A program made the translations under genes and the position numbers. 64,000 nt of DNA from Sycobia sp. Sy_11 (lineage: Eukaryota; Arthropoda; Insecta; Hymenoptera; Epichrysomallidae): the NCBI GenBank assembly GCA_018907035.1, contig JACCIC010000135.1, forward strand, positions 1,171,001 to 1,235,000. The letters are read 5' to 3'. Positions 28,701-38,760 of the stretch are shown piece after piece. Numbering within the stretch: position 1 is the stretch's first letter; every line of letters starts with the position of its first letter. Below the pieces are notes generated by a model. The model saw only the letters and a program-made list of their open reading frames with translations. It was not told the DNA's origin and did not search any database.

Positions 28701-28954
28701 CATTTTACATTCATTGTTCCACCATGGAACTTGCTTTTTATTGTTTTTAATTTTTATTTTAGGAATGTTTTTATTTGCGCTGTTTTTAATAATTTTTGTG
28801 AATTCGGTTATTATTATTTCGATAGTTTGTTCGTGAATGTTTTCAATTTCTAAATTCTCTATATCATTTTCTATTTTATTTTAATAAACTACCCAATCTG
28901 CTTTTTTAAAATTCCAAGGTAAAAAATCTGATTTAGGATGTACGTTGTGGCTAT
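25786..28954 (-). mobile_element. I-clade-like LINE, 3' part (interrupted)
   Basis: This is the 3' two-thirds of a non-LTR retrotransposon read right to left. It runs from just after the endonuclease domain (KSDFLPWNFKKADW at about 28930) through reverse transcriptase, an RNase H-like region and a C-terminal zinc finger to an A-rich tail at about 25786-25805 preceded by TTAAATAAATAAATT. The 5' part lies at 38761-40440, across the inserted gypsy-like element. An RNase H region plus the Cys-His motif points to the I clade or a relative. Confidence 0.8.
26033..28920 (-). pseudogene. LINE ORF2 pieces: reverse transcriptase, RNase H remains, zinc finger
   Basis: Pieces in order on the minus strand are VPWWNNECKM (about 28700), SLDLEKAYEMIW (reverse transcriptase block A, about 27865), GVPQGSV and FADDLTIYCAG (catalytic FADD, about 27620), FLIFSRN and ILGMTFDRKLKWKEHI (27480-27350), a region at 27121-26726, an RNase H-like segment at 26707-26402, and a C-terminal CNNC-x7-H-x4-C finger at 26200-26140. 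Many stops and shifts occur and the RNase H region seems partly deleted. The protein would copy LINE RNA at a nicked target. This copy is dead. Confidence 0.85.
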
Positions 28955-29548
28955 ACTACTGAAGAAGGTAGTCGTCGCAACTGCCGAAACTCGAACAAGT
29001 AGAGAGAGAACGCGATATCTAGTCTCTCTCTCTCTCTACCACTAAGTTAAGTACAGCGTATGCCGTAGAGGGGATACACTGCGCGCGGCAAGAGAACGCG
29101 CGTTCAATGTATTAGACCGGCGGCCGCTATCCCCTCTAATACATGTCGCACGCACACTATTATACGCTCTCACTGAGCAGCCTGAGCCGCAACCAATGTA
29201 GCGAACGCGCGAATACCAGCATATACAACGGGTGTCCAAAAACGAATGCACCCGCTGTATTTAATTAAATTATCTAAAACAAATAATTTAATGTACACAT
29301 AATGTATAAATATAAGTATATAAATATTTAAGCTTGTGTATATGTGTATTATTATTGTGCGCAGGACACAGGCTGCTAATAATAACGAAATACAAAATAA
29401 TAATTGTTATAATTATTATTGAATATTATAATTATTATTAATTATTATTGTTATTATTATAATTATTGTTATTATTAATATAATTATTATAATTCGGCGC
29501 CTCGTCCGAAATTAAACGAGCGGCGACGGAATTATCCGATTATTTTGC

Positions 29549-29558
29549 TATAAAAAGG
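29549..29558 (+). promoter_or_regulatory. LTR TATA box
   Basis: TATAAAAAGG in a GC-richer context. A start about 30 bases downstream (near the ACAGTTC at 29578-29584) would place the five hairpins inside the R region of the RNA. The same box occurs at 37871-37880 in the 3' LTR. Confidence 0.7.
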
Positions 29559-29684
29559 CCCGCAAAAGGCAAAATCGACAGTTCGCCCGGTGAACCAACT
29601 GCCCCGAAGTTGTTTCACACGAACTCCTCCCGGAGCTAATACCTTTTCCAGAGCTCGATTTAATCCTGACTTTTTTCCTTTCCG

Positions 29685-30032
29685 AAATTATTAACTTGAT
29701 CTCTGTTGCGAGGCGCTCCTCAAAAGACAGACGGTTAATAATTTACCTTTCCGAAGTAAACGTGATCCTGGTTGCGAGGCGCTCCTCAAAAGACCAGCAG
29801 TTTACTTATCCTTACATTTACCAATTTCTCCGAAGTTATTAGCTTGATCTCTGTTGCGAGGCGCTCCTCAAAAGACAGACGGCTAATAACTTTACCTATC
29901 CTTAAGTAAACGTGATCCTGGTTGCGAGGCGCTCCTCAAAAGACCAGCAGTTTACTTATCCAGACCAGAAATTCTCCCCTTAACTCTTGATCCTGGTTGC
30001 GAGGCGCTCCTCAAAAGACCAGCGGAGTTAAG
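29685..30032 (+). ncRNA. Five tandem covarying RNA hairpins in the 5' LTR
   Basis: Units lie at 29685-29744, 29754-29807, 29833-29892, 29903-29958 and 29979-30032. Each has an outer stem, an inner five-pair stem and an apical GAGG-CGCT-CCTC hairpin with AAAAG on its 3' side. Outer stems pair perfectly over 8-11 bp but differ in sequence: AAATTATTAAC/GTTAATAATTT, AAGTAAAC/GTTTACTT (units 2 and 4), AAGTTATTAGC/GCTAATAACTT and CTTAACTC/GAGTTAAG. The inner stem is CTGGT/ACCAG in units 2, 4 and 5 and TCTGT/ACAGA in units 1 and 3. Conserved core plus compensating changes is strong evidence for selected RNA structure. The function (packaging, export, translation or dimerisation) is unknown. Confidence 0.85.
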
Positions 30033-30438
30033 TTTGTTCCTTATTTTTTTACCTTTCAAATCAACCTGTCTCGATTCATTAAATCCCCGCGTGGAAAATA
30101 ACACCGGGTATTCGTGCGGAAACTAGCGCCGAATATTAGAGGCATTGCGGAAAATAGCGCAAAATTTATACAAATAAATATATAGATCTAGCTATAGTTT
30201 ACCTTTATTAATTATTTTTTGTGTTTATATTGATTTGTTTCAGAATCCTGTAGATAGAGGAGCTAATTTATTTTTTCGTAAATAAATTTATATTTTTGTT
30301 ATAAGAAAATTATATACTGTGTTCGTGTAATATTATTTTCCTGAAACCGCCGTCCAATCCTGAAAAACTTCCTCCCCTCTCAAAACTACCCTGGGAAGAT
30401 ACCGCGTAGGCTATCCCGAGGGGGATAGGAACGTTACA

Positions 30439-30456
30439 TGGCGCCCGAACAGGGAC
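30439..30456 (+). promoter_or_regulatory. Primer binding site, tRNA-Lys type
   Basis: The 18 bases TGGCGCCCGAACAGGGAC follow the LTR end without a gap and complement the 3' end of an animal tRNA-Lys of the kind used by lentiviruses. Minus-strand DNA synthesis of the element would start here. Confidence 0.9.
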
Positions 30457-30816
30457 TAGTATAAATCCGAAAAAAAAAAATTTAATTTGAATAAAGTTTA
30501 TTATTTCTGAAATTACTGAATAATTTCTTTAAGCGGAATTTTTTTTAATTGTTTATAAAAAACCGTATTTCGATTTGTGTGAAAAGAGCCTAGTGGCGGG
30601 TTGAGCGACTAGGTGCTAAGGCGGGCTGAGCCGAAGCACGAAGTAATACAAATCGAAATTTATTTAAAAATTTTATCGTTTTGAAAATAGAAAACTAAGA
30701 TAATAGTTTTCTTATAAATAAAATAAAAAGGAATTATTTTTTCCATCTCAGAAAGAATTAAAATATTACACAGTATATTTTTTTTTACAAATATATAAAT
30801 TTCAAATCTTGCTAAA
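30457..30816 (+). other. Leader of the gypsy-like element
   Basis: Untranslated region between primer site and gag. It contains the motif at 30597-30645 shared with 23541-23590. The gag ATG at 30817 follows CTTGCTAAA, an acceptable start context. Confidence 0.7.
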
Positions 30817-31983
30817 ATGGCAAAACCACGCGTAAGCTGGATCTATAAACTAACGAAAGAGCAAATTGAAAGAGAACTCGTTAAAAACAATTTACCAATA
30901 GAAGGTACAAAAGCGTATTTGCGACAAAATTTAATTTCATATGTACGAGCTCACCCGGAGCTCTTTTTCGACAAACCAGAAGACGAAAAAGACTTCAACG
31001 AAGATGTAAATCGAACTCAAGATCTTGAAGAAATTGAGGAAGAATTTCGTCAATTACGTATACAACTATTAAACCAACAAGCAGCTGCATCAACGTCCAG
31101 TCCAGTCGTGGCACACCAAGCTGCGAACACACCTTTTAGCACTCCGCCTGCTACTGTATACGTACAACAACCGTCGGCTGCACAAGAAAACGCCAAAGTG
31201 ATGGACCAAATGAGAAAGTGGAATTGTCACTTTGATGGCAAAAACCTACACTCTTTCCTCGAAAGGATCCATGAGTTGAAAAGAGCATATAATTTATCCG
31301 AACAACAAATTTTGAATGGATTCCCGGAACTATTGCGAGGTGATGCACAATTATGGCATAGAAATTATGCCTCAAATTTTAAAACGTTCTCGGAATTAGA
31401 AGAAGGGTTGAGAAAATTCTACTTGTCACCTAGCGAACGTCGAAATCTTGATCGACAGATCCATAATCGTGTACAAGAACCTAATGAAAACATCCGTGCA
31501 TTCGATAATTCATTAATTACACTAATGAGACGTCGAGGAGGTTTTTCGGAGGAACAGAAAACCGAAACAATGTACTACAATATGCTCGCCGAATATAGAT
31601 TACATATTCGTCGTGATGACGTCAAAACAACGTCAGATATCGTTCAACAAGTAGAAGAGTATCTGGAAATCAAAAAACAGTATGAAAGACAGAAAATTAC
31701 GAAAAATCACACCTCCACACCTGAATATAAAACAAGAAAACCGGAGATCCGAGTAAATAATTTTAACAATAAAATTGCTTCAGTATACGACCGAACTAAG
31801 TGTTGCTGGAAGTGCAAACAAACGGGCCACGATCGTTTTAAGTGCACAAACCAGCAAAAGATCTTTTGTTCATATTGTGGTCGTGATAATGTATACACTC
31901 GTGATTGCAAGTGTCACCCGTCGGGAAACGCCAGGAGGGCCGAGCCCACACCGAACCTAGCTCGGCCCAACAACAACAACTAG
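30817..31983 (+). CDS. gag: Gag polyprotein of gypsy-like element
   Basis: A structural protein of 388 residues that would assemble the virus-like particle and bind element RNA. The N-terminal part (about 10-50: KLTKEQIERELVKNNLPIEG) resembles the SAP-like helix pair seen at the start of many insect gypsy Gags. The middle (about 130-280) is the capsid-like region with ELLRGDAQLW and FYLSPSERRN. Near the C-terminus is one complete zinc knuckle (C330, C333, H338, C343), then a second with Val at the His position (C351, C354, V359, C364). Other gypsy Gags may share that Val, so it need not be damage. The frame is fully open. The last 60 bases carry the -1 frameshift signal into pol. Confidence 0.92.
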   Translation: MAKPRVSWIYKLTKEQIERELVKNNLPIEGTKAYLRQNLISYVRAHPELFFDKPEDEKDFNEDVNRTQDLEEIEEEFRQLRIQLLNQQAAASTSSPVVAHQAANTPFSTPPATVYVQQPSAAQENAKVMDQMRKWNCHFDGKNLHSFLERIHELKRAYNLSEQQILNGFPELLRGDAQLWHRNYASNFKTFSELEEGLRKFYLSPSERRNLDRQIHNRVQEPNENIRAFDNSLITLMRRRGGFSEEQKTETMYYNMLAEYRLHIRRDDVKTTSDIVQQVEEYLEIKKQYERQKITKNHTSTPEYKTRKPEIRVNNFNNKIASVYDRTKCCWKCKQTGHDRFKCTNQQKIFCSYCGRDNVYTRDCKCHPSGNARRAEPTPNLARPNNNN

Positions 31984-34900
31984 AAATAGAAACTGACAAC
32001 AGACATTTTGTAAGAGTAATGATTGGCGATTACGAAGTGTCAGCCCTTTTGGATACGGGATCTGTAAGTTCCTATGTGAGTGAACAATTGAGTGAAATCT
32101 GTATGAAATTCGGATGGCATACTGAGCCAAGTAATCGAATTGCAGTCTTGGCAAATGGCTCAGAAATAAGCCTTGGAAGAAATATTTATGGACCAATATA
32201 TGTACAAGGAAAAAGATTCCAACAAAAATTTTTAGTAATGAATGGATTGAGCCATCCTATGCTCTTAGGTATGGATACTCTAAAAAAACTTGAAATCCGT
32301 ATAATATTAAACAACTGTGAAATAAATAAATCAGTAAACAATCAAATACATCAGGTATGTACAATTGATACACCGTACGGACTACAGAATTTAAATCCCA
32401 CCGAACGTCAGAGATTAGAAAAATTTTTAAAAACAGAGATGGATAAATTTAACTTTATCAAAGGTCCTACTCCGCTCCTGCAACACGAAATCGTCGTGGA
32501 AGAAAAAACACCTATTAAACAGAAATATCGGCCAAGAAATCCGGCCATGCAAGAAATCATCAATCAGGAAGTTGATAAAATGCTAAACGAAAACGTAATT
32601 CAACCGTCAAACAGTCCGTGGAGTTCACCAGTCGTTATTGTAAAAAAGAAGGACGGAAAAGCACGATTCTGTGTGGATTTCAGAAAAGTAAATAAAGTTA
32701 CAAAGAAAGACGCTTATCCTCTTCCACAAATTAATGCGACACTAGACAAGCTAAGAGGAGCCCGATATCTATCCACATTAGATTTGAAAAATGGATATTG
32801 GCAAGTAGCTCTAACACCGGAAAGCCGTCCTGTCACTGCCTTCACCGTCGCCGGAAAAGGCCTATATGAATTCAATGTAATGCCGTTTGGCTTACACTCA
32901 GCACCGGCTACCTTCCAACGACTCTTAGACAGAGTGATTACTCCAGAAATGGCTCCGTATGCTTTCGCATATCTAGACGACATCGTAGTAGTCTCGTCTA
33001 CGTTTGAGGAACATCTACAAAAATTAAAAGAAGTTTTCAACCGATTAAGAATAGCGAAATTAAAACCTAATCCGGATAAATGCCATTTCGCCCGCTCAAG
33101 TCTAAAATATTTAGGACATATTGTAGACAAAAACGGTCTACAAACCGATCCGGAAAAGGTGGCTGCTGTACTAAATTTAGCACCACCGAAAAACATGAAA
33201 GAAATTCAGCGATTTATGGGTCTAATATCATGGTACAGACGATTTCTTAAAGATATCTCGAATGTTGCCGCACCACTACATCGACTTACTAGAAAAAAAG
33301 CTAAGTGGACCTGGGGAGAAACCGAGCAAGATGCATTTGACAAAATCAAGCAGCTTCTCACAAACGCACCCATCCTTTCCTGTCCAGACTGGAGCCGTCC
33401 GTTTATCCTGCAAACGGATGCCAGTAAAGAAGGATTGGGAGCTGCGCTTACTCAAGCATATGAGAACAACGAACGAGTCATCGCCTTTGCAAGTCGAACA
33501 CTCTCCCCAGCCGAAAAAAACTATTCCGCCACTGAGCTAGAATGTCTAGCAATTAAATGGGGTGTGTGGAAATTTCGAGATTATCTTGAAGGATATCATT
33601 TTATTGTACTCACCGACCATCAATCGCTGAAATGGCTTAATAACATAGAGAATCCTTCCGGTCGATTAGCCCGCTGGGCACTTGAATTAAGCCAGTACGA
33701 TTTCGAAATTAAATATCGTCCTGGTAAAGATAATTTATTAGCCGATACTTTATCTCGACAGCCGCTAGCCGTCGAAGCAACTACAATTAAAATAGCAGAT
33801 TGGTACGAAAAAATATACAAAAATGTGGAGAGTGATCCTGAAAACTACCCCGATTTTTGTATCATTAATGGCAGATTATATAAGCATATTTTACACACAT
33901 TAGACTTCAATGATACGAGTGAAAATTTGCAATGGATGATCTGTGTACCGAAATCCGAGCAACATAGAGTACTAAACGAAGTACATAACGATCCTACTGC
34001 CGGTCATCTAGGAATTTCGAAAACTCTGGTGAAGATATCCAAAAGTTATTACTGGCCTGGAATGCTCCGGATGACTACAAACTATGTAAGAAACTGCGAG
34101 AATTGTCATCAATTTAAATCTCAACAACAATCACCGGCTGGAAAATTGCATGCGACGTTAGTCGAACAGCCTTGGGATATCGTGGCCGTTGATCTTATAG
34201 GACCACTCCCAAGATCGTCAAGATTGAACACCTGGCTGTTAGTCATGCAGGATAAATTAACAAAATGGGTAGAATTAAAACCCTTACGAAAAGCGACTGC
34301 CGAAGCTATAACGCTGGCAGTTAAACAGCAAGTCATTCTACGTTTTGGATGCCCGAAAATTATAATTTCCGATAATGGACGACAATTCGTGTCAAAAGAA
34401 TTTACGGAAATGCTATCAAAATCTGGAATAACTCATAGAAAAACACCACCGTATACGCCGCAGTGTAATCCAGTAGAGCGAGCAAATAAAGTAATAAAAA
34501 CCATGATTTCTCAATACATAGAGAAAAATCATCGAACATGGGATTGCTATTTACTCGAGCTACAATTCGCATATAATACCGCTACATCCGAAACAACGGG
34601 ATTTACACCCGCTTACATAAATTTTGGAAGAGAATTAAGAGCACCCGGGTCTCTTGTCCAAAAATTTGGTCAAACTTGTAATATTACAGCCGAGAATCGG
34701 ATTAATAAAATACAAGAGACAATAGAACTTGTACAAAGTCAATTAGCTCGGAGCTTCCAAAAACAAAAACATTACTATGATCAAAACCGTCGAAAATGGA
34801 ACCCGGAAATCGGCGATTATGTATATAAACGCTCACACGAATTATCTAATAAATTAGACGCGTTTAACGCAAAATTAGCTCCAAAATATCTGGGTCCGTA

Positions 34901-35027
34901 TACTATTTTCAGGAAGGTATCGCCAGTTATATACGACCTGAAAGATAATAAAGGTCAAATTATTAAACATATTCATATTAAGGATCTTCGTAAAAGATAT
35001 AACAATCTAGATAAGATACCACCGTGA
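31905..35027 (+). CDS. pol: Pol polyprotein (protease, RT, RNase H, integrase) of gypsy-like element
   Basis: Expressed as a -1 frameshift fusion with Gag, entering the frame at 31923; the ATG at 31905 is probably not used. Residues counted from that ATG: aspartic protease with LLDTGS (Asp50), reverse transcriptase with LSTLDLKNGYWQV and YLDD (356-359), RNase H with QTDAS (Asp505), and integrase with zinc residues H694, H701, C731 and C734 and triad Asp763, Asp823 and Glu858, the last two 35 apart. A GPY/F-type C-terminal module ends the protein (YLGPYTIFRKV). All catalytic residues are present and the 1040 codons are unbroken, so the enzyme set may be active. Domain order with integrase last places it in Ty3/gypsy (Metaviridae). 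Confidence 0.95.
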   Translation: MQVSPVGKRQEGRAHTEPSSAQQQQLEIETDNRHFVRVMIGDYEVSALLDTGSVSSYVSEQLSEICMKFGWHTEPSNRIAVLANGSEISLGRNIYGPIYVQGKRFQQKFLVMNGLSHPMLLGMDTLKKLEIRIILNNCEINKSVNNQIHQVCTIDTPYGLQNLNPTERQRLEKFLKTEMDKFNFIKGPTPLLQHEIVVEEKTPIKQKYRPRNPAMQEIINQEVDKMLNENVIQPSNSPWSSPVVIVKKKDGKARFCVDFRKVNKVTKKDAYPLPQINATLDKLRGARYLSTLDLKNGYWQVALTPESRPVTAFTVAGKGLYEFNVMPFGLHSAPATFQRLLDRVITPEMAPYAFAYLDDIVVVSSTFEEHLQKLKEVFNRLRIAKLKPNPDKCHFARSSLKYLGHIVDKNGLQTDPEKVAAVLNLAPPKNMKEIQRFMGLISWYRRFLKDISNVAAPLHRLTRKKAKWTWGETEQDAFDKIKQLLTNAPILSCPDWSRPFILQTDASKEGLGAALTQAYENNERVIAFASRTLSPAEKNYSATELECLAIKWGVWKFRDYLEGYHFIVLTDHQSLKWLNNIENPSGRLARWALELSQYDFEIKYRPGKDNLLADTLSRQPLAVEATTIKIADWYEKIYKNVESDPENYPDFCIINGRLYKHILHTLDFNDTSENLQWMICVPKSEQHRVLNEVHNDPTAGHLGISKTLVKISKSYYWPGMLRMTTNYVRNCENCHQFKSQQQSPAGKLHATLVEQPWDIVAVDLIGPLPRSSRLNTWLLVMQDKLTKWVELKPLRKATAEAITLAVKQQVILRFGCPKIIISDNGRQFVSKEFTEMLSKSGITHRKTPPYTPQCNPVERANKVIKTMISQYIEKNHRTWDCYLLELQFAYNTATSETTGFTPAYINFGRELRAPGSLVQKFGQTCNITAENRINKIQETIELVQSQLARSFQKQKHYYDQNRRKWNPEIGDYVYKRSHELSNKLDAFNAKLAPKYLGPYTIFRKVSPVIYDLKDNKGQIIKHIHIKDLRKRYNNLDKIPP
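31923..31968 (+). promoter_or_regulatory. -1 ribosomal frameshift signal
   Basis: The slippery heptamer GGGAAAC (31923-31929) is in the correct phase (G GGA AAC in gag). After 7 bases comes a perfect 9-bp hairpin: GGGCCGAGC at 31937-31945 and GCTCGGCCC at 31960-31968, with a 14-base loop. Heptamer, spacer and stem fit known retroviral -1 signals. Gag and pol overlap in exactly this phase. Confidence 0.93.
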
Positions 35028-35072: not shown

Positions 35073-35591
35073 ATGCAGCACCCCGTCGAACAAGAACTCT
35101 GCCGTCAATTCCTGGAACTCAGTGTTCCTATCAAGTGTTATGGACTGCCATTCCATGCACTAATTAACACTGGGACACTGATGACCACGGCGTCAGCAGA
35201 AATCGGCAGGATACTTGAGCGACGTGGTGCTCGGCGTGTATACGGGGAAGCGGTTCTCCATCTTAACCGGGACCCGTTATACACCATTGATCCTGTCAAC
35301 ATTGTGTCCACATATACACTGGAGGTGGAATACACCTGCAAAGAGAAAACCAGAATAAGTAATTTCGCCATAGTCCCAGACCAGCCCGTGGACATCATTT
35401 TTGGTATGGCGGAAATCAACAAGATTGGATTTCGCGTTCTATGGAACCAAAGAAGTCCAGCAGCCCAGGAACGTCGCCGAGAAAACAGGCGACTGCATCG
35501 TAGAGCAGCCAGAAGAGTCGCCGCTAGATTGGAAGACGAAGGAATCTACACCGCCACCGACTCCGAAAATCCTAGCATCGACAGCGAGTAA
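35073..35591 (+). CDS. ORF3: protease-fold-like protein lacking the catalytic Asp
   Basis: 172 residues. An N-terminal part reads FHALINTGT, matching the flap-and-catalytic loop pattern hydrophobic-hydrophobic-D-T-G with Asn for Asp. After about 75 residues comes VDIIFGMAEINKIGFRV, matching the second conserved segment of retropepsins (hydrophobic-G-x2). The C-terminal 50 residues are Arg-rich then acidic. It therefore looks like a duplicated or captured retropepsin-type domain that cannot cut by the normal mechanism and could bind a partner, RNA or substrate. It is in frame with pol behind one TGA. The 3' side runs into a 36-base A tract at 35715-35750. The assignment rests on motif reading only. 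Confidence 0.6.
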   Translation: MQHPVEQELCRQFLELSVPIKCYGLPFHALINTGTLMTTASAEIGRILERRGARRVYGEAVLHLNRDPLYTIDPVNIVSTYTLEVEYTCKEKTRISNFAIVPDQPVDIIFGMAEINKIGFRVLWNQRSPAAQERRRENRRLHRRAARRVAARLEDEGIYTATDSENPSIDSE

Positions 35592-36081: not shown

Positions 36082-36645
36082 ATGGCAAAATATGTACTTA
36101 CCCGGGCGCAGCGCGACCTGCTCGTCGCCGAGCAGGAGTTAAATAATAGGTTAAGAATTCCGGTACGTCCGCGTTTGGTCGTACCGCCAGCACGACCGCC
36201 TCGTCTGCAGGTGGAAGGCCGATGCTCTTCCATCATAAAACACGTCGGCCCGAAACCTACAGCCGTCCCGACGACACCACGGGTCAGCGAGGCGGACGTG
36301 CCTCCAGCCGACGGCGAGCAGCCCGCCCTACCGAGTAATGCACAAACGCCTGGGCCACCACGACCTGCGCCACCACTACTGCCAGCTGAGCAGACCGTTC
36401 CGCTGGGGATGCCGTCGTTACCGGCTCCCGAGTATAAGCCTCACGGTTCGGCCCCGACGGACGACACGCGTCCTTGGCATGCGTTCATCTACGATGAGGA
36501 GGCCACGTTGTTTTTCCGTCTGGGAGCCGTACGGCATCGTCAGCGCATCGGGAACCGGAGGTTCCACATGCGGATGGACGCAAAAACGAGGCATGTGAGA
36601 TGTGTCACATGCTCCGAGAAAAAGATTTGTATGTTTTACACTTTT

Positions 36646-36651
<6 letters not shown>
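36082..36651 (+). CDS. ORF4: proline-rich accessory protein with Cys-rich C-terminus
   Basis: 189 residues, GC-rich compared with its surroundings. The N-terminus is helical and charged (LTRAQRDLLVAEQELNNRL), the middle (about 25-130) is Pro/Ala-rich and likely disordered, and the C-terminal third is compact (WHAFIYDEEATLFFRLGAV, then HMRMDAKTRHVRCVTC and a final Cys) and could bind a metal. I do not recognise a family. It has no signal peptide or membrane segment, so it is not an envelope protein of the usual kind. The stop codon lies inside the start of a 29-base A run (36650-36678). An ORF in the same position exists upstream of the LTR at 22845. Confidence 0.55.
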
Positions 36652-37002: not shown

Positions 37003-37017
37003 GAAAAAAGAGGGAGA
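37003..37017 (+). promoter_or_regulatory. Polypurine tract of gypsy-like element
   Basis: GAAAAAAGAGGGAGA directly before TGCGACGG. It sets the true left end of the 3' LTR at 37018, not at 37277 where similarity to the 5' LTR begins. Confidence 0.75.
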
Positions 37018-38760
37018 TGCGACGGCCAAAAACATGGCCGCGCAAATTTACTTCGAACAAAGGACTCATGTTACACGTTAAAATTTGAGATAGTATTACA
37101 TCTAATTCAGTGGATGTATTTTACAATACATACACGGAATTAGATGTATAAATTTACAAGAAAGAATATCGAATATTATTAGAAATAATATATTAAACAT
37201 ATTATTTCTATAATGATTAAATTAAGACTCGCATATATACCAAATAAACACCGAAAACCGGGCAAAGGTCGCGACGACTACTGAAGAAGGTAGTCGTCGC
37301 AACTGCCGAAACTCGAACAAGTAGAGAGAGAACGCGATATCTAGTCTCTCTCTCTCTCTACCACTAAGTTAAGTACAGCGTATGCCGTAGAGGGGATACA
37401 CTGCGCGCGGCAAGAGAACGCGCGTTCAATGTATTAGACCGGCGGCCGCTATCCCCTCTAATACATGTCGCACGCACACTATTATACGCTCTCACTGAGC
37501 AGCCTGAGCCGCAACCAATGTAGCGAACGCGCGAATACCAGCATATACAACGGGTGTCCAAAAACGAATGCACCCGCTGTATTTAATTAAATTATCTAAA
37601 ACAAATAATTTAATGTACACATAATGTATAAATATAAGTATATAAATATTTAAGCTTGTGTATATGTGTATTATTATTGTGCGCAGGACACAGGCTGCTA
37701 ATAATAACGAAATACAAAATAATAATTGTTATAATTATTATTGAATATTATAATTATTATTAATTATTATTGTTATTATTATAATTATTGTTATTATTAA
37801 TATAATTATTATAATTCGGCGCCTCGTCCGAAATTAAACGAGCGGCGACGGAATTATCCGATTATTTTGCTATAAAAAGGCCCGCAAAAGGCAAAATCGA
37901 CAGTTCGCCCGGTGAACCAACTGCCCCGAAGTTGTTTCACACGAACTCCTCCCGGAGCTAATACCTTTTCCAGAGCTCGATTTAATCCTGACTTTTTTCC
38001 TTTCCGAAATTATTAACTTGATCTCTGTTGCGAGGCGCTCCTCAAAAGACAGACGGTTAATAATTTACCTTTCCGAAGTAAACGTGATCCTGGTTGCGAG
38101 GCGCTCCTCAAAAGACCAGCAGTTTACTTATCCTTACATTTACCAATTTCTCCGAAGTTATTAGCTTGATCTCTGTTGCGAGGCGCTCCTCAAAAGACAG
38201 ACGGCTAATAACTTTACCTATCCTTAAGTAAACGTGATCCTGGTTGCGAGGCGCTCCTCAAAAGACCAGCAGTTTACTTATCCAGACCAGAAATTCTCCC
38301 CTTAACTCTTGATCCTGGTTGCGAGGCGCTCCTCAAAAGACCAGCGGAGTTAAGTTTGTTCCTTATTTTTTTACCTTTCAAATCAACCTGTCTCGATTCA
38401 TTAAATCCCCGCGTGGAAAATAACACCGGGTATTCGTGCGGAAACTAGCGCCGAATATTAGAGGCATTGCGGAAAATAGCGCAAAATTTATACAAATAAA
38501 TATATAGATCTAACTATAGTTTACCTTTATTAATTATTTTTTGTGTTTATATTGATTTGTTTCAGAATCCTGTAGATAGAGGAGCTAATTTATTTTTTCG
38601 TAAATAAATTTATATTTTTGTTATAAGAAAATTATATACTGTGTTCGTGTAATATTATTTTCCTGAAACCGCCGTCCAATCCTGAAAAACTTCCTCCCCT
38701 CTCAAAACTACCCTGGGAAGATACCGCGTAGGCTATCCCGAGGGGGATAGGAACGTTACA
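37018..38760 (+). mobile_element. 3' LTR of gypsy-like element, 1743 bp, complete
   Basis: It starts TGCGACGGCC after the polypurine tract and ends AACGTTACA. From 37277 it is the same as the 5' LTR except at one base. The first 259 bp, missing in the 5' copy, hold two inverted repeats: 37098-37147 (ACATCTAATTC/GAATTAGATGT with paired inner part) and about 37180-37210. A further pair, GCGACGACTAC at 37271-37281 and GTAGTCGTCGC at 37290-37300, straddles the point where the 5' LTR begins. TATA box at 37871. Confidence 0.85.
38007..38354 (+). ncRNA. Five tandem covarying RNA hairpins in the 3' LTR
   Basis: Exact copies of the units at 29685-30032, displaced by 8322 bases. In genomic RNA the array would be present at both ends if it lies in R as the TATA position suggests. 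Confidence 0.85.

What the first reader, a model, noticed from the sequence alone, without database searches (positions are those of the whole stretch)
29685..30032. Five tandem RNA hairpins with identical core and covarying stems in an LTR
Seen directly: five units with the same GAGG-CGCT-CCTC apex and flanking bases. Outer stems of 8-11 bp are all perfectly paired but use four different sequences, and the inner stem alternates between CTGGT/ACCAG and TCTGT/ACAGA. Such compensation is hard to explain except by selection on RNA structure. The array lies downstream of the LTR TATA box, so it is probably in R and present at both RNA ends. A role in packaging, dimerisation, nuclear export or translation is inference. 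I know no named element with this core.
Basis: partly seen in the sequence, partly recalled or inferred. Interest (0 to 1): 0.88.

Follow-up and report, generated by a model that had tools for sequence, protein, structure and literature searches.

The report
Hairpin arrays tag retrotransposon RNA
A virus-like jumping gene carries, in the repeats predicted to form both ends of its RNA, a row of predicted small hairpins whose tips stay the same while their stems change in matching pairs, and related jumping genes in the same genome carry hairpins with the same kinds of tips, so they are likely tags by which the element's shell protein would pick out its own RNA.

Summary
Window 29685-30032 holds five units with one core and three unrelated, fully paired outer stems. 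They lie in the LTR of a Ty3/Gypsy element whose Gag resembles solved Arc capsids, about 105 nt downstream of a predicted start, so predicted to be in R. The source genome holds 2454 matches to the core pattern (reversed control 0). In a sample of LTRs, stem positions changed on both sides in all three unit types; 11 of 90 distinct units were classed as chimeras, and single uncompensated changes also occur.

The array is one of three hairpin families in this leader. Other gag families reuse two of the tips on other stems: up to four GG-CGC[T/A]-CC hairpins in one, a run of GNGYTGA-loop hairpins in another. F2 was seen only in the window's family. I read these as genomic-RNA recognition signals (packaging/dimerisation), akin to the GACG hairpin pair of murine leukaemia virus. 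Pairing and reuse are shown by sequence; Gag binding and dimerisation are inferred.

The parts
29685..30032 (+). F1 array: five tandem hairpins with apical GG-CGCT-CC (units 29685-29744, 29754-29807, 29832-29893, 29903-29958, 29979-30032)
38007..38354 (+). F1 array in the 3' LTR
   Evidence: cores at 38032-38323
29549..29583 (+). TATAAAA (29549) and Inr-like CAGTT (29579), predicted transcription start near 29580
   Evidence: TATAAAA in 26 of 37 sampled LTRs
30086..30108 (+). F2a hairpin, loop GAAAATAA, bulged C
30109..30135 (+). F2b hairpin, loop GAAACTAG, bulged T; one stem pair changes C-G/T-A between LTR copies
30145..30162 (+). F2c hairpin, loop GAAAATAG
30173..30178 (+). AATAAA, likely poly(A) signal (a second at 30281)
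30439..30456 (+). primer-binding site TGGCGCCCGAACAGGGAC (lysine-tRNA type by recall)
30567..30659 (+). post-PBS leader domain: 14-pair closing stem around two F3 hairpins (predicted fold)
30589..30613 (+). F3a hairpin, loop GGGTTGA
30614..30638 (+). F3b hairpin, loop GGGCTGA
28955..30438 (+). 5' LTR copy, first 259 bp missing
37018..38760 (+). 3' LTR, complete (TG...CA), purine run (likely PPT) 37003-37017
30817..31983 (+). gag, Arc-type capsid, CCHC knuckle
31905..35027 (+). protease, reverse transcriptase, RNase H, integrase frame
35073..35591 (+). ORF3 with conserved arginine-rich C-terminal stretch; candidate RNA-binding partner (inference)

Best explanation
The array is a set of RNA hairpins predicted to lie in R at both ends of the genomic RNA of a Ty3/Gypsy retrotransposon, and it likely works, with two further hairpin families in the same leader, as the signal by which Gag would select and pair genomic RNA for packaging. 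Shown by sequence: units with fixed tips and internal loops, stems that change in matching pairs, and reuse of two of the tips on other stems in other gag families of the genome. Inferred: the tips are what is read; the Arc-type Gag nucleocapsid reads them, several per RNA; and the CGCN tips, with their self-complementary CG step, may also touch the tips of a second RNA, as GACG tetraloops do in murine leukaemia virus. F1 and F2 would be present at both RNA ends, while F3 sits between primer-binding site and gag, where retroviral packaging signals usually lie (recalled).
For: Pairing and covariation of F1. F3: 91.1% of cells paired, 35 of 112 cells changed on both sides, 0 of 500 shuffles. F2: one stem pair exchanged C-G/T-A between copies (no shuffle control run). 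Core pattern 2454 times in the genome, reversed control 0. Tips reused across gag families: exact GGCGC[T/A]CC in 4 of the 8 loci scanned, beyond the F1 cores of one more; four with stems of 4 or more in L111 against a mean of 0.0025 and a largest of 1 in 2000 shuffles; F3 tips upstream of the primer-binding sites of L110 and L112. Gag has a CCHC knuckle and matches Arc2 and Arc1 capsids, E 6e-18 and 4.4e-16. A fly study suggests that dArc1 mRNA lacking its 3' UTR is not efficiently loaded (PMC10289811, passages); in murine leukaemia virus two hairpins with one tetraloop contribute to dimer stability (PMC5874298, passages).
Against: No binding, packaging, dimerisation or transcript data. F1 and F2 lie upstream of the primer-binding site, so any spliced RNA from the LTR promoter would carry them too. 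Arrays range from one to seven units, and units classed as chimeric, most with broken outer stems, exist (11 of 90). The families with CGC[T/A] tips showed no F2 or F3 motif, those with F3 runs showed no F1 or F2 motif, and L081 showed none of the three. Two of the five covariation measures did not exceed shuffles.
Confidence: 0.45

Rival explanations
1. Rev/Rex-like or Tat/TAR-like regulation: ORF3, with its arginine-rich helix, likely binds the R hairpins to export or activate full-length RNA.
For: ORF3 has one relative, at 58% identity, with R134-R136, R139-R140, R143, R147-R148 and R152 unchanged; a helix is predicted at 129-155; HTLV-1 Rex binds an element in the 3' U3/R region of HTLV-1 mRNAs (PMC8877913, passages). 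Hairpins with asymmetric internal loops are typical targets of such helices (recalled).
Against: The ORF3 model is poor (mean pLDDT 43.9); only one relative was found; no splicing evidence; the gag families with related hairpins were not checked for ORF3.
Confidence: 0.2
2. Host-factor or ribosome element: the hairpins recruit a host RNA-binding protein for nuclear export, stability or internal initiation on a long structured 5' UTR.
For: Five hairpins lie between the predicted start and the gag ATG 1.2 kb downstream. Other retroelements and a hepatitis virus use multi-stem-loop transport elements (PMC11379458, passages).
Against: No Rfam match at threshold. The tips differ between related gag families, which fits a partner that evolves with the element better than a host factor (inference).
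Confidence: 0.15
3. DNA-level sites: the core is a binding site for a host zinc-finger or insulator protein, as with the Su(Hw) sites in gypsy (recalled).
For: A long invariant core in each of the five window units, in the 5' transcribed region of an LTR.
Against: DNA sites need no pairing of flanks, yet outer stems covary. The U.G pair at the inner-stem end is kept in 75 of 76 units; on the other strand it would be A.C. The sense strand folds better by 0.7-2.0 kcal/mol in 5 of 5 units.
Confidence: 0.08
4. Mutational artefact: template switching at hairpins during replication or reverse transcription makes arms complementary without selection.
For: It can create double changes in one step and would explain perfect Watson-Crick arms (general knowledge).
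Against: It should also erase the asymmetric internal loops (GC/AAAA; TGATC/C), which stay; tips recur on unrelated stems in other families. One-sided intermediates are not decisive: type A pair 8-49 shows AU 12, GC 12, GU 3, other 3.
Confidence: 0.08

Closest known systems
GACG hairpin pair (SL-C/SL-D) of murine leukaemia virus and RD-114
   Same: Hairpins in the 5' leader with one fixed tetraloop; loop-loop contacts reported (PMC5874298, passages). A CG step is present in both GACG and CGCN tips.
   Different: Tips CGC[T/A], GNGYTGA or GWAAMTAR instead of GACG; one to seven F1 units; F1 and F2 in the predicted R, so at both RNA ends; found in Ty3/Gypsy elements; contacts untested.
Rex-responsive element in U3/R of HTLV-1
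   Same: Structured RNA in the LTR R region (PMC8877913, passages); a candidate arginine-rich partner is encoded here.
   Different: Repeated short hairpins; no evidence for export.
Ty3 5' end dimerisation sequence and gRNA structure in yeast
   Same: Ty3/Gypsy element with structured 5' RNA end; dimer through short palindromes (PMC11381356, abstract, outline and one section).
   Different: No tandem repeated hairpins are described in the parts read.
Insect Arc1 (domesticated Ty3/Gypsy Gag) and its 3' UTR
   Same: Homologous capsid (that the chains are from Drosophila is recalled); RNA loading suggested to depend on the 3' UTR (PMC10289811, passages); a printed 3' UTR probe primer shares TGATCCTGGT with units 2, 4, 5.
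   Different: Whether the Arc1 3' UTR has such hairpins could not be tested; the 10-nt match may be chance (529 of 200,000 shuffles of this one primer; four primers looked at).

Membership tests
Ty3/Gypsy LTR retrotransposon | gag, then protease-RT-RNase H-integrase in this order, between LTRs with PBS and PPT | tested here: met
Ty3/Gypsy LTR retrotransposon | target-site duplication | tested here: not met
   none seen by eye at the window copy; its 5' LTR is truncated, which would explain this
MLV-type packaging/dimerisation hairpins | repeated hairpins with an invariant tetraloop and variable stems in the 5' leader | tested here: met
MLV-type packaging/dimerisation hairpins | GACG loop | tested here: not met
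   loops are CGCT in most F1 units and CGCT or CGCA in the other family
MLV-type packaging/dimerisation hairpins | position between PBS and gag | tested here: inconclusive
   met by F3 in the window, not by F1/F2, which lie in the LTR
MLV-type packaging/dimerisation hairpins | Gag binding, loop-loop contact, effect on packaging | not testable with these tools
   needs biochemistry
Rex/RxRE-type export system | structured element in R of the LTR | tested here: inconclusive
   structured and in the LTR; R is predicted from TATA and AATAAA only
Rex/RxRE-type export system | element-encoded arginine-rich RNA-binding protein | tested here: inconclusive
   ORF3 has a conserved arginine-rich stretch; binding untested
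any Rfam family | score above the family's gathering threshold | tested here: not met
   over 28900-30700: seven weak matches, none at threshold, none on the sense strand of the array
DNA-binding site array (Su(Hw)-type insulator) | flanks of the site free of pairing constraint | tested here: not met
   outer stems covary

The most novel reading that the evidence does not exclude
Ty3/Gypsy elements with Arc-type Gag carry a portable alphabet of at least three hairpin words (tips CGCN, GNGYUGA and GWAAMUAR), dealt out in different numbers and places to different families, that Gag reads to tell its own RNA from all other RNA; the domesticated Arc1 gene of insects kept one of these words in its 3' UTR.
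Probability: 0.12. Interest if true: 0.95.

Novelty: new variant of a known kind. Interest (0 to 1): 0.8.

Why it matters
How Ty3/Gypsy Gag and its domesticated relatives (Arc; [quoted passage not shown] Here are short, repeated, conserved hairpins that can be synthesised and tested one by one. The reuse of tips across families gives a ready comparison, and the possible echo in the Arc1 3' UTR can be checked at once by anyone with the fly transcript.

Tried and rejected
Exact and loop-relaxed core patterns in viral contigs: 0 and 0 matches. RT piece in viral contigs: no pattern match; gag alignment there: 36 pattern matches, none confirmed. RT piece in bacterial and archaeal genomes: one eukaryote-like contig in a bacterial bin, 41% identical, not used. 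Rfam: nothing at threshold. Covariance model R1 in the window: the ten known units and one weak match at E 2.6; in 17 loci 51 matches. Frame at 36082-36651: no homologue, no Pfam. ORF3 as a duplicated protease domain: colinear hhalign match at probability 3%, too weak to claim. A search for the L081 form of the TGATCCTGG motif used a spacing two bases too long and found none; not repeated. Counting family-specific patterns genome-wide got no answer. The 28 nearest LTR pieces (L002-L029: 25 places, two of them the window's own) were 99.0-100% identical and carried little information.

Dropped rows: of 90 distinct 56-mers, 11 classed as chimeric (by arm likeness; L045 may be a decayed B unit) and 3 unassigned were left out. 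For F3, 4 of 18 motif hits were left out as stray matches not in an element leader; the L110 hairpin near 1114 and the decayed one near 1223 were not caught by the filter, and repeats in L112 of sequences already seen in L110 were not listed. Only 50 loci (37 LTRs after removing overlaps) out of 2454 matches were read, and they were the first in contig order (C1-C3). They were found by the exact core, so core conservation in that sample is partly by construction; stem letters are not.

In some searches two of five measures (pairs with a change on both sides; further pair types) did not exceed the shuffles; percentage paired, cells changed on both sides and the covariation score did in each. 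Relatedness of copies can inflate the latter. No shuffle control was run for F2; its outermost F2b pair is unpaired in 8 of 25 sequences. The unguided shared-loop test caught F3a-F3b and paired F2a and F2b with a hairpin at 30682, not with F2c; 2 of 200 shuffles did as well, and AT-rich tiles elsewhere in the window gave many more pairs, though 1 of 76 tiles matched it on loops with two or more G/C.

Full report
What is there. The window lies in a 621-Mb, 472-contig assembly without a name. Of 43 gag relatives the five that carry an organism name are hymenopteran (Lasioglossum, Nasonia, Odontomachus twice, Trichogramma), so an ant or other hymenopteran is likely but was not established. The element is a Ty3/Gypsy retrotransposon: Gag, then protease, RT, RNase H and integrase. 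The two LTRs in the window match over 1487 positions with one difference. In five other loci (L005-L009) the LTR match begins 259 bp further upstream, at window 37018, just after a purine run; so the complete LTR is taken as 37018-38760 (1743 bp, TG...CA), and the 5' copy in the window is truncated. That would explain why no target-site duplication was seen.

The array (F1). Five units, 29685-30032, each with outer stem, TGATC/C junction, six-pair inner stem ending in U.G, GC/AAAA internal loop, and GAGG-CGCT-CCTC. Three outer-stem types (A, B, C) are unlike each other; arms pair 8 of 8 with their own partner and 2-5 of 8 with the arms of other types. Units 1-2 and 3-4 are duplicates; between unit 1 and unit 3 the hairpin differs only at two stem pairs, both still paired. 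Energy z-scores do not single the array out; the case rests on pairing and covariation.

Test on related LTRs. The core pattern (loop left free) occurs 2454 times in the genome, against 0 for the reversed pattern. From 50 loci I took 90 distinct 56-nt units: 30 A, 27 B, 19 C, 11 classed as chimeric and 3 unassigned. Type A shows C-G/U-A, A-U/G-C and U-A/C-G exchanges (20 double-changed cells of 570), type B A-U/G-C and U-A/A-U among others (12 of 513), type C C-G/U-A and C-G/A-U (6 of 361). In each, 0 of 500 shuffles reached the observed percentage paired, cell count or covariation score, and slid registers gave at most 4 such cells; the number of pairs with double changes (89, 260 and 158 of 500) and of further pair types (409, 294 and 415 of 500) did not beat the shuffles. 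Single uncompensated changes also occur. The chimeras join the 5' arm of one unit type to the 3' arm of another through the shared core, so recombination in the core likely adds and removes units: 37 LTRs hold one to seven. Of 127 units, 80 have all 8 outer pairs, 26 have 7, 5 have 6, and 16 have 5 or fewer; the tip GGCGCTCC is unchanged in 99.

Position in the RNA. TATAAAA at 29549 and CAGTT at 29579 predict a start near 29580; AATAAA lies at 30173 and 30281. In 26 of 37 sampled LTRs TATAAAA lies 142-163 nt upstream of the first core (my count of its list). So the array is predicted to be in R and thus at both ends of the RNA.

Two more hairpin families. F2: three hairpins at 30086-30162 with loops GAAAATAA, GAAACTAG and GAAAATAG and different stems; between LTR copies one F2b pair is C-G in 13, T-A in 6, T.G in 4 and unpaired in 2 of 25 distinct sequences, and F2c changes TTGCG/CGCAA to TCGCG/CGCGA. 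No shuffle control was run for F2. F3: two hairpins at 30589-30638 with loop GGGYTGA inside a predicted 14-pair stem, between primer-binding site and gag. An unguided test for shared loops in 30037-30816 found 3 pairs (F3a-F3b, and F2a and F2b each with a hairpin at 30682); 2 of 200 shuffles did as well.

Other gag families in the genome. A search with P0007, a gag 45% identical to the window's, gave 112 places. Of eight loci scanned, L094, L106, L111 and L114 have 3, 3, 4 and 1 exact GGCGC[T/A]CC upstream of gag, L113 has three F1 cores, and L081, L110 and L112 have none. The stems (CGGG/CCCG, GAAAAGG/CCTTTTC, CGAGG/CCTCG, CTAAGG/CCTTAG in L111) differ from F1 and from each other; in L094 one of the three closes with two pairs only. 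A TATAAA lies upstream of them (L111 at 211), but TATAAA is frequent in these AT-rich stretches. In L111, 4 such hairpins compare with a shuffle mean of 0.0025 and a maximum of 1 in 2000 (L111 was picked because it had most). L110 and L112 instead carry a run of F3-type hairpins just upstream of the primer-binding site: by eye seven in L110, one of them decayed; the filter listed five in L110 and two further distinct ones in L112. On 14 F3 sequences (window family, L110, L112) 91.1% of cells pair and 35 of 112 are changed on both sides, 0 of 500 shuffles; two of five measures did not beat the shuffles. L081 shows none of the three motifs, only a TGATCCTGG.

How it likely works. The parts that stay fixed are the tips and internal loops; the stems only need to pair; two of the tips are shared by elements with related Gag. 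That is what a set of protein- or RNA-contacting hairpins looks like (inference). The most likely reader is the element's own Gag, whose capsid matches the solved Arc2 and Arc1 capsids (E 6e-18 and 4.4e-16; their fly origin is recalled) and which has a CCHC knuckle. In murine leukaemia virus two GACG-tipped hairpins in the leader make loop-loop contacts that add to dimer stability (PMC5874298, passages). A fly study suggests that Arc1 mRNA without its own 3' UTR is not efficiently loaded into capsids that travel (PMC10289811, passages). Packaging or dimerisation is therefore my best reading (0.45). The main rival is a Rex-like pair with ORF3.

A lead, not a result: the forward primer printed for the fly Arc1 3' UTR probe contains TGATCCTGGT, identical to the junction and inner stem of units 2, 4 and 5. 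For that primer 529 of 200,000 shuffles match as well, and four primers were looked at.

Print. Ten paper searches showed no description of such arrays in the titles and abstract starts listed; the last found no paper holding four of its six terms, and one core string occurs in one paper, on rice (listing). Most subscription papers are not held.

Noticed in passing
   Followed up: yes
window 30567-30659: Post-PBS leader domain: two F3 hairpins with shared GGGYTGA loop inside a long stem; F3-type hairpins recur, seven by eye, in another family's LTR (L110:923-1245).
   Followed up: yes
L094, L106, L111, L114 (upstream of gag): Different gag family with up to four GG-CGC[T/A]-CC hairpins on unrelated stems.
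   Followed up: partly
window 35073-35591: ORF3, 172 aa, one relative at 58% identity, conserved arginine-rich C-terminus; weak colinear likeness to the protease domain with NTG in place of DTG. A TATATAAG lies 39 nt upstream of its ATG.
   Followed up: partly
window 36082-36651: Open frame of 189 aa with no Pfam domain and no homologue at E 0.001 or better among 5.8 billion proteins (369 candidates scored).
   Followed up: partly
window 28955 and 37018-37276: The 5' LTR lacks the first 259 bp that the 3' LTR has, though the two otherwise differ at one of 1487 positions: a truncation after or during a recent insertion.
   Followed up: partly
L062, L063: LTRs with seven F1 units, and others with one: arrays likely grow and shrink through the shared core, leaving chimeric units.
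   Followed up: partly
L081, minus strand near 709: TGATCCTGG...GACCAGC in a further gag family, without the F1 tip.
   Followed up: partly
window 30677-30694: A further predicted hairpin with loop GAAAATAG, as in F2c, in the post-PBS leader; its stem is A/T only.
   Followed up: no
L001: Ty3/Gypsy-like gag-pol contig in a bin labelled Erysipelotrichaceae: probable eukaryotic contamination of a metagenome bin.
   Followed up: no
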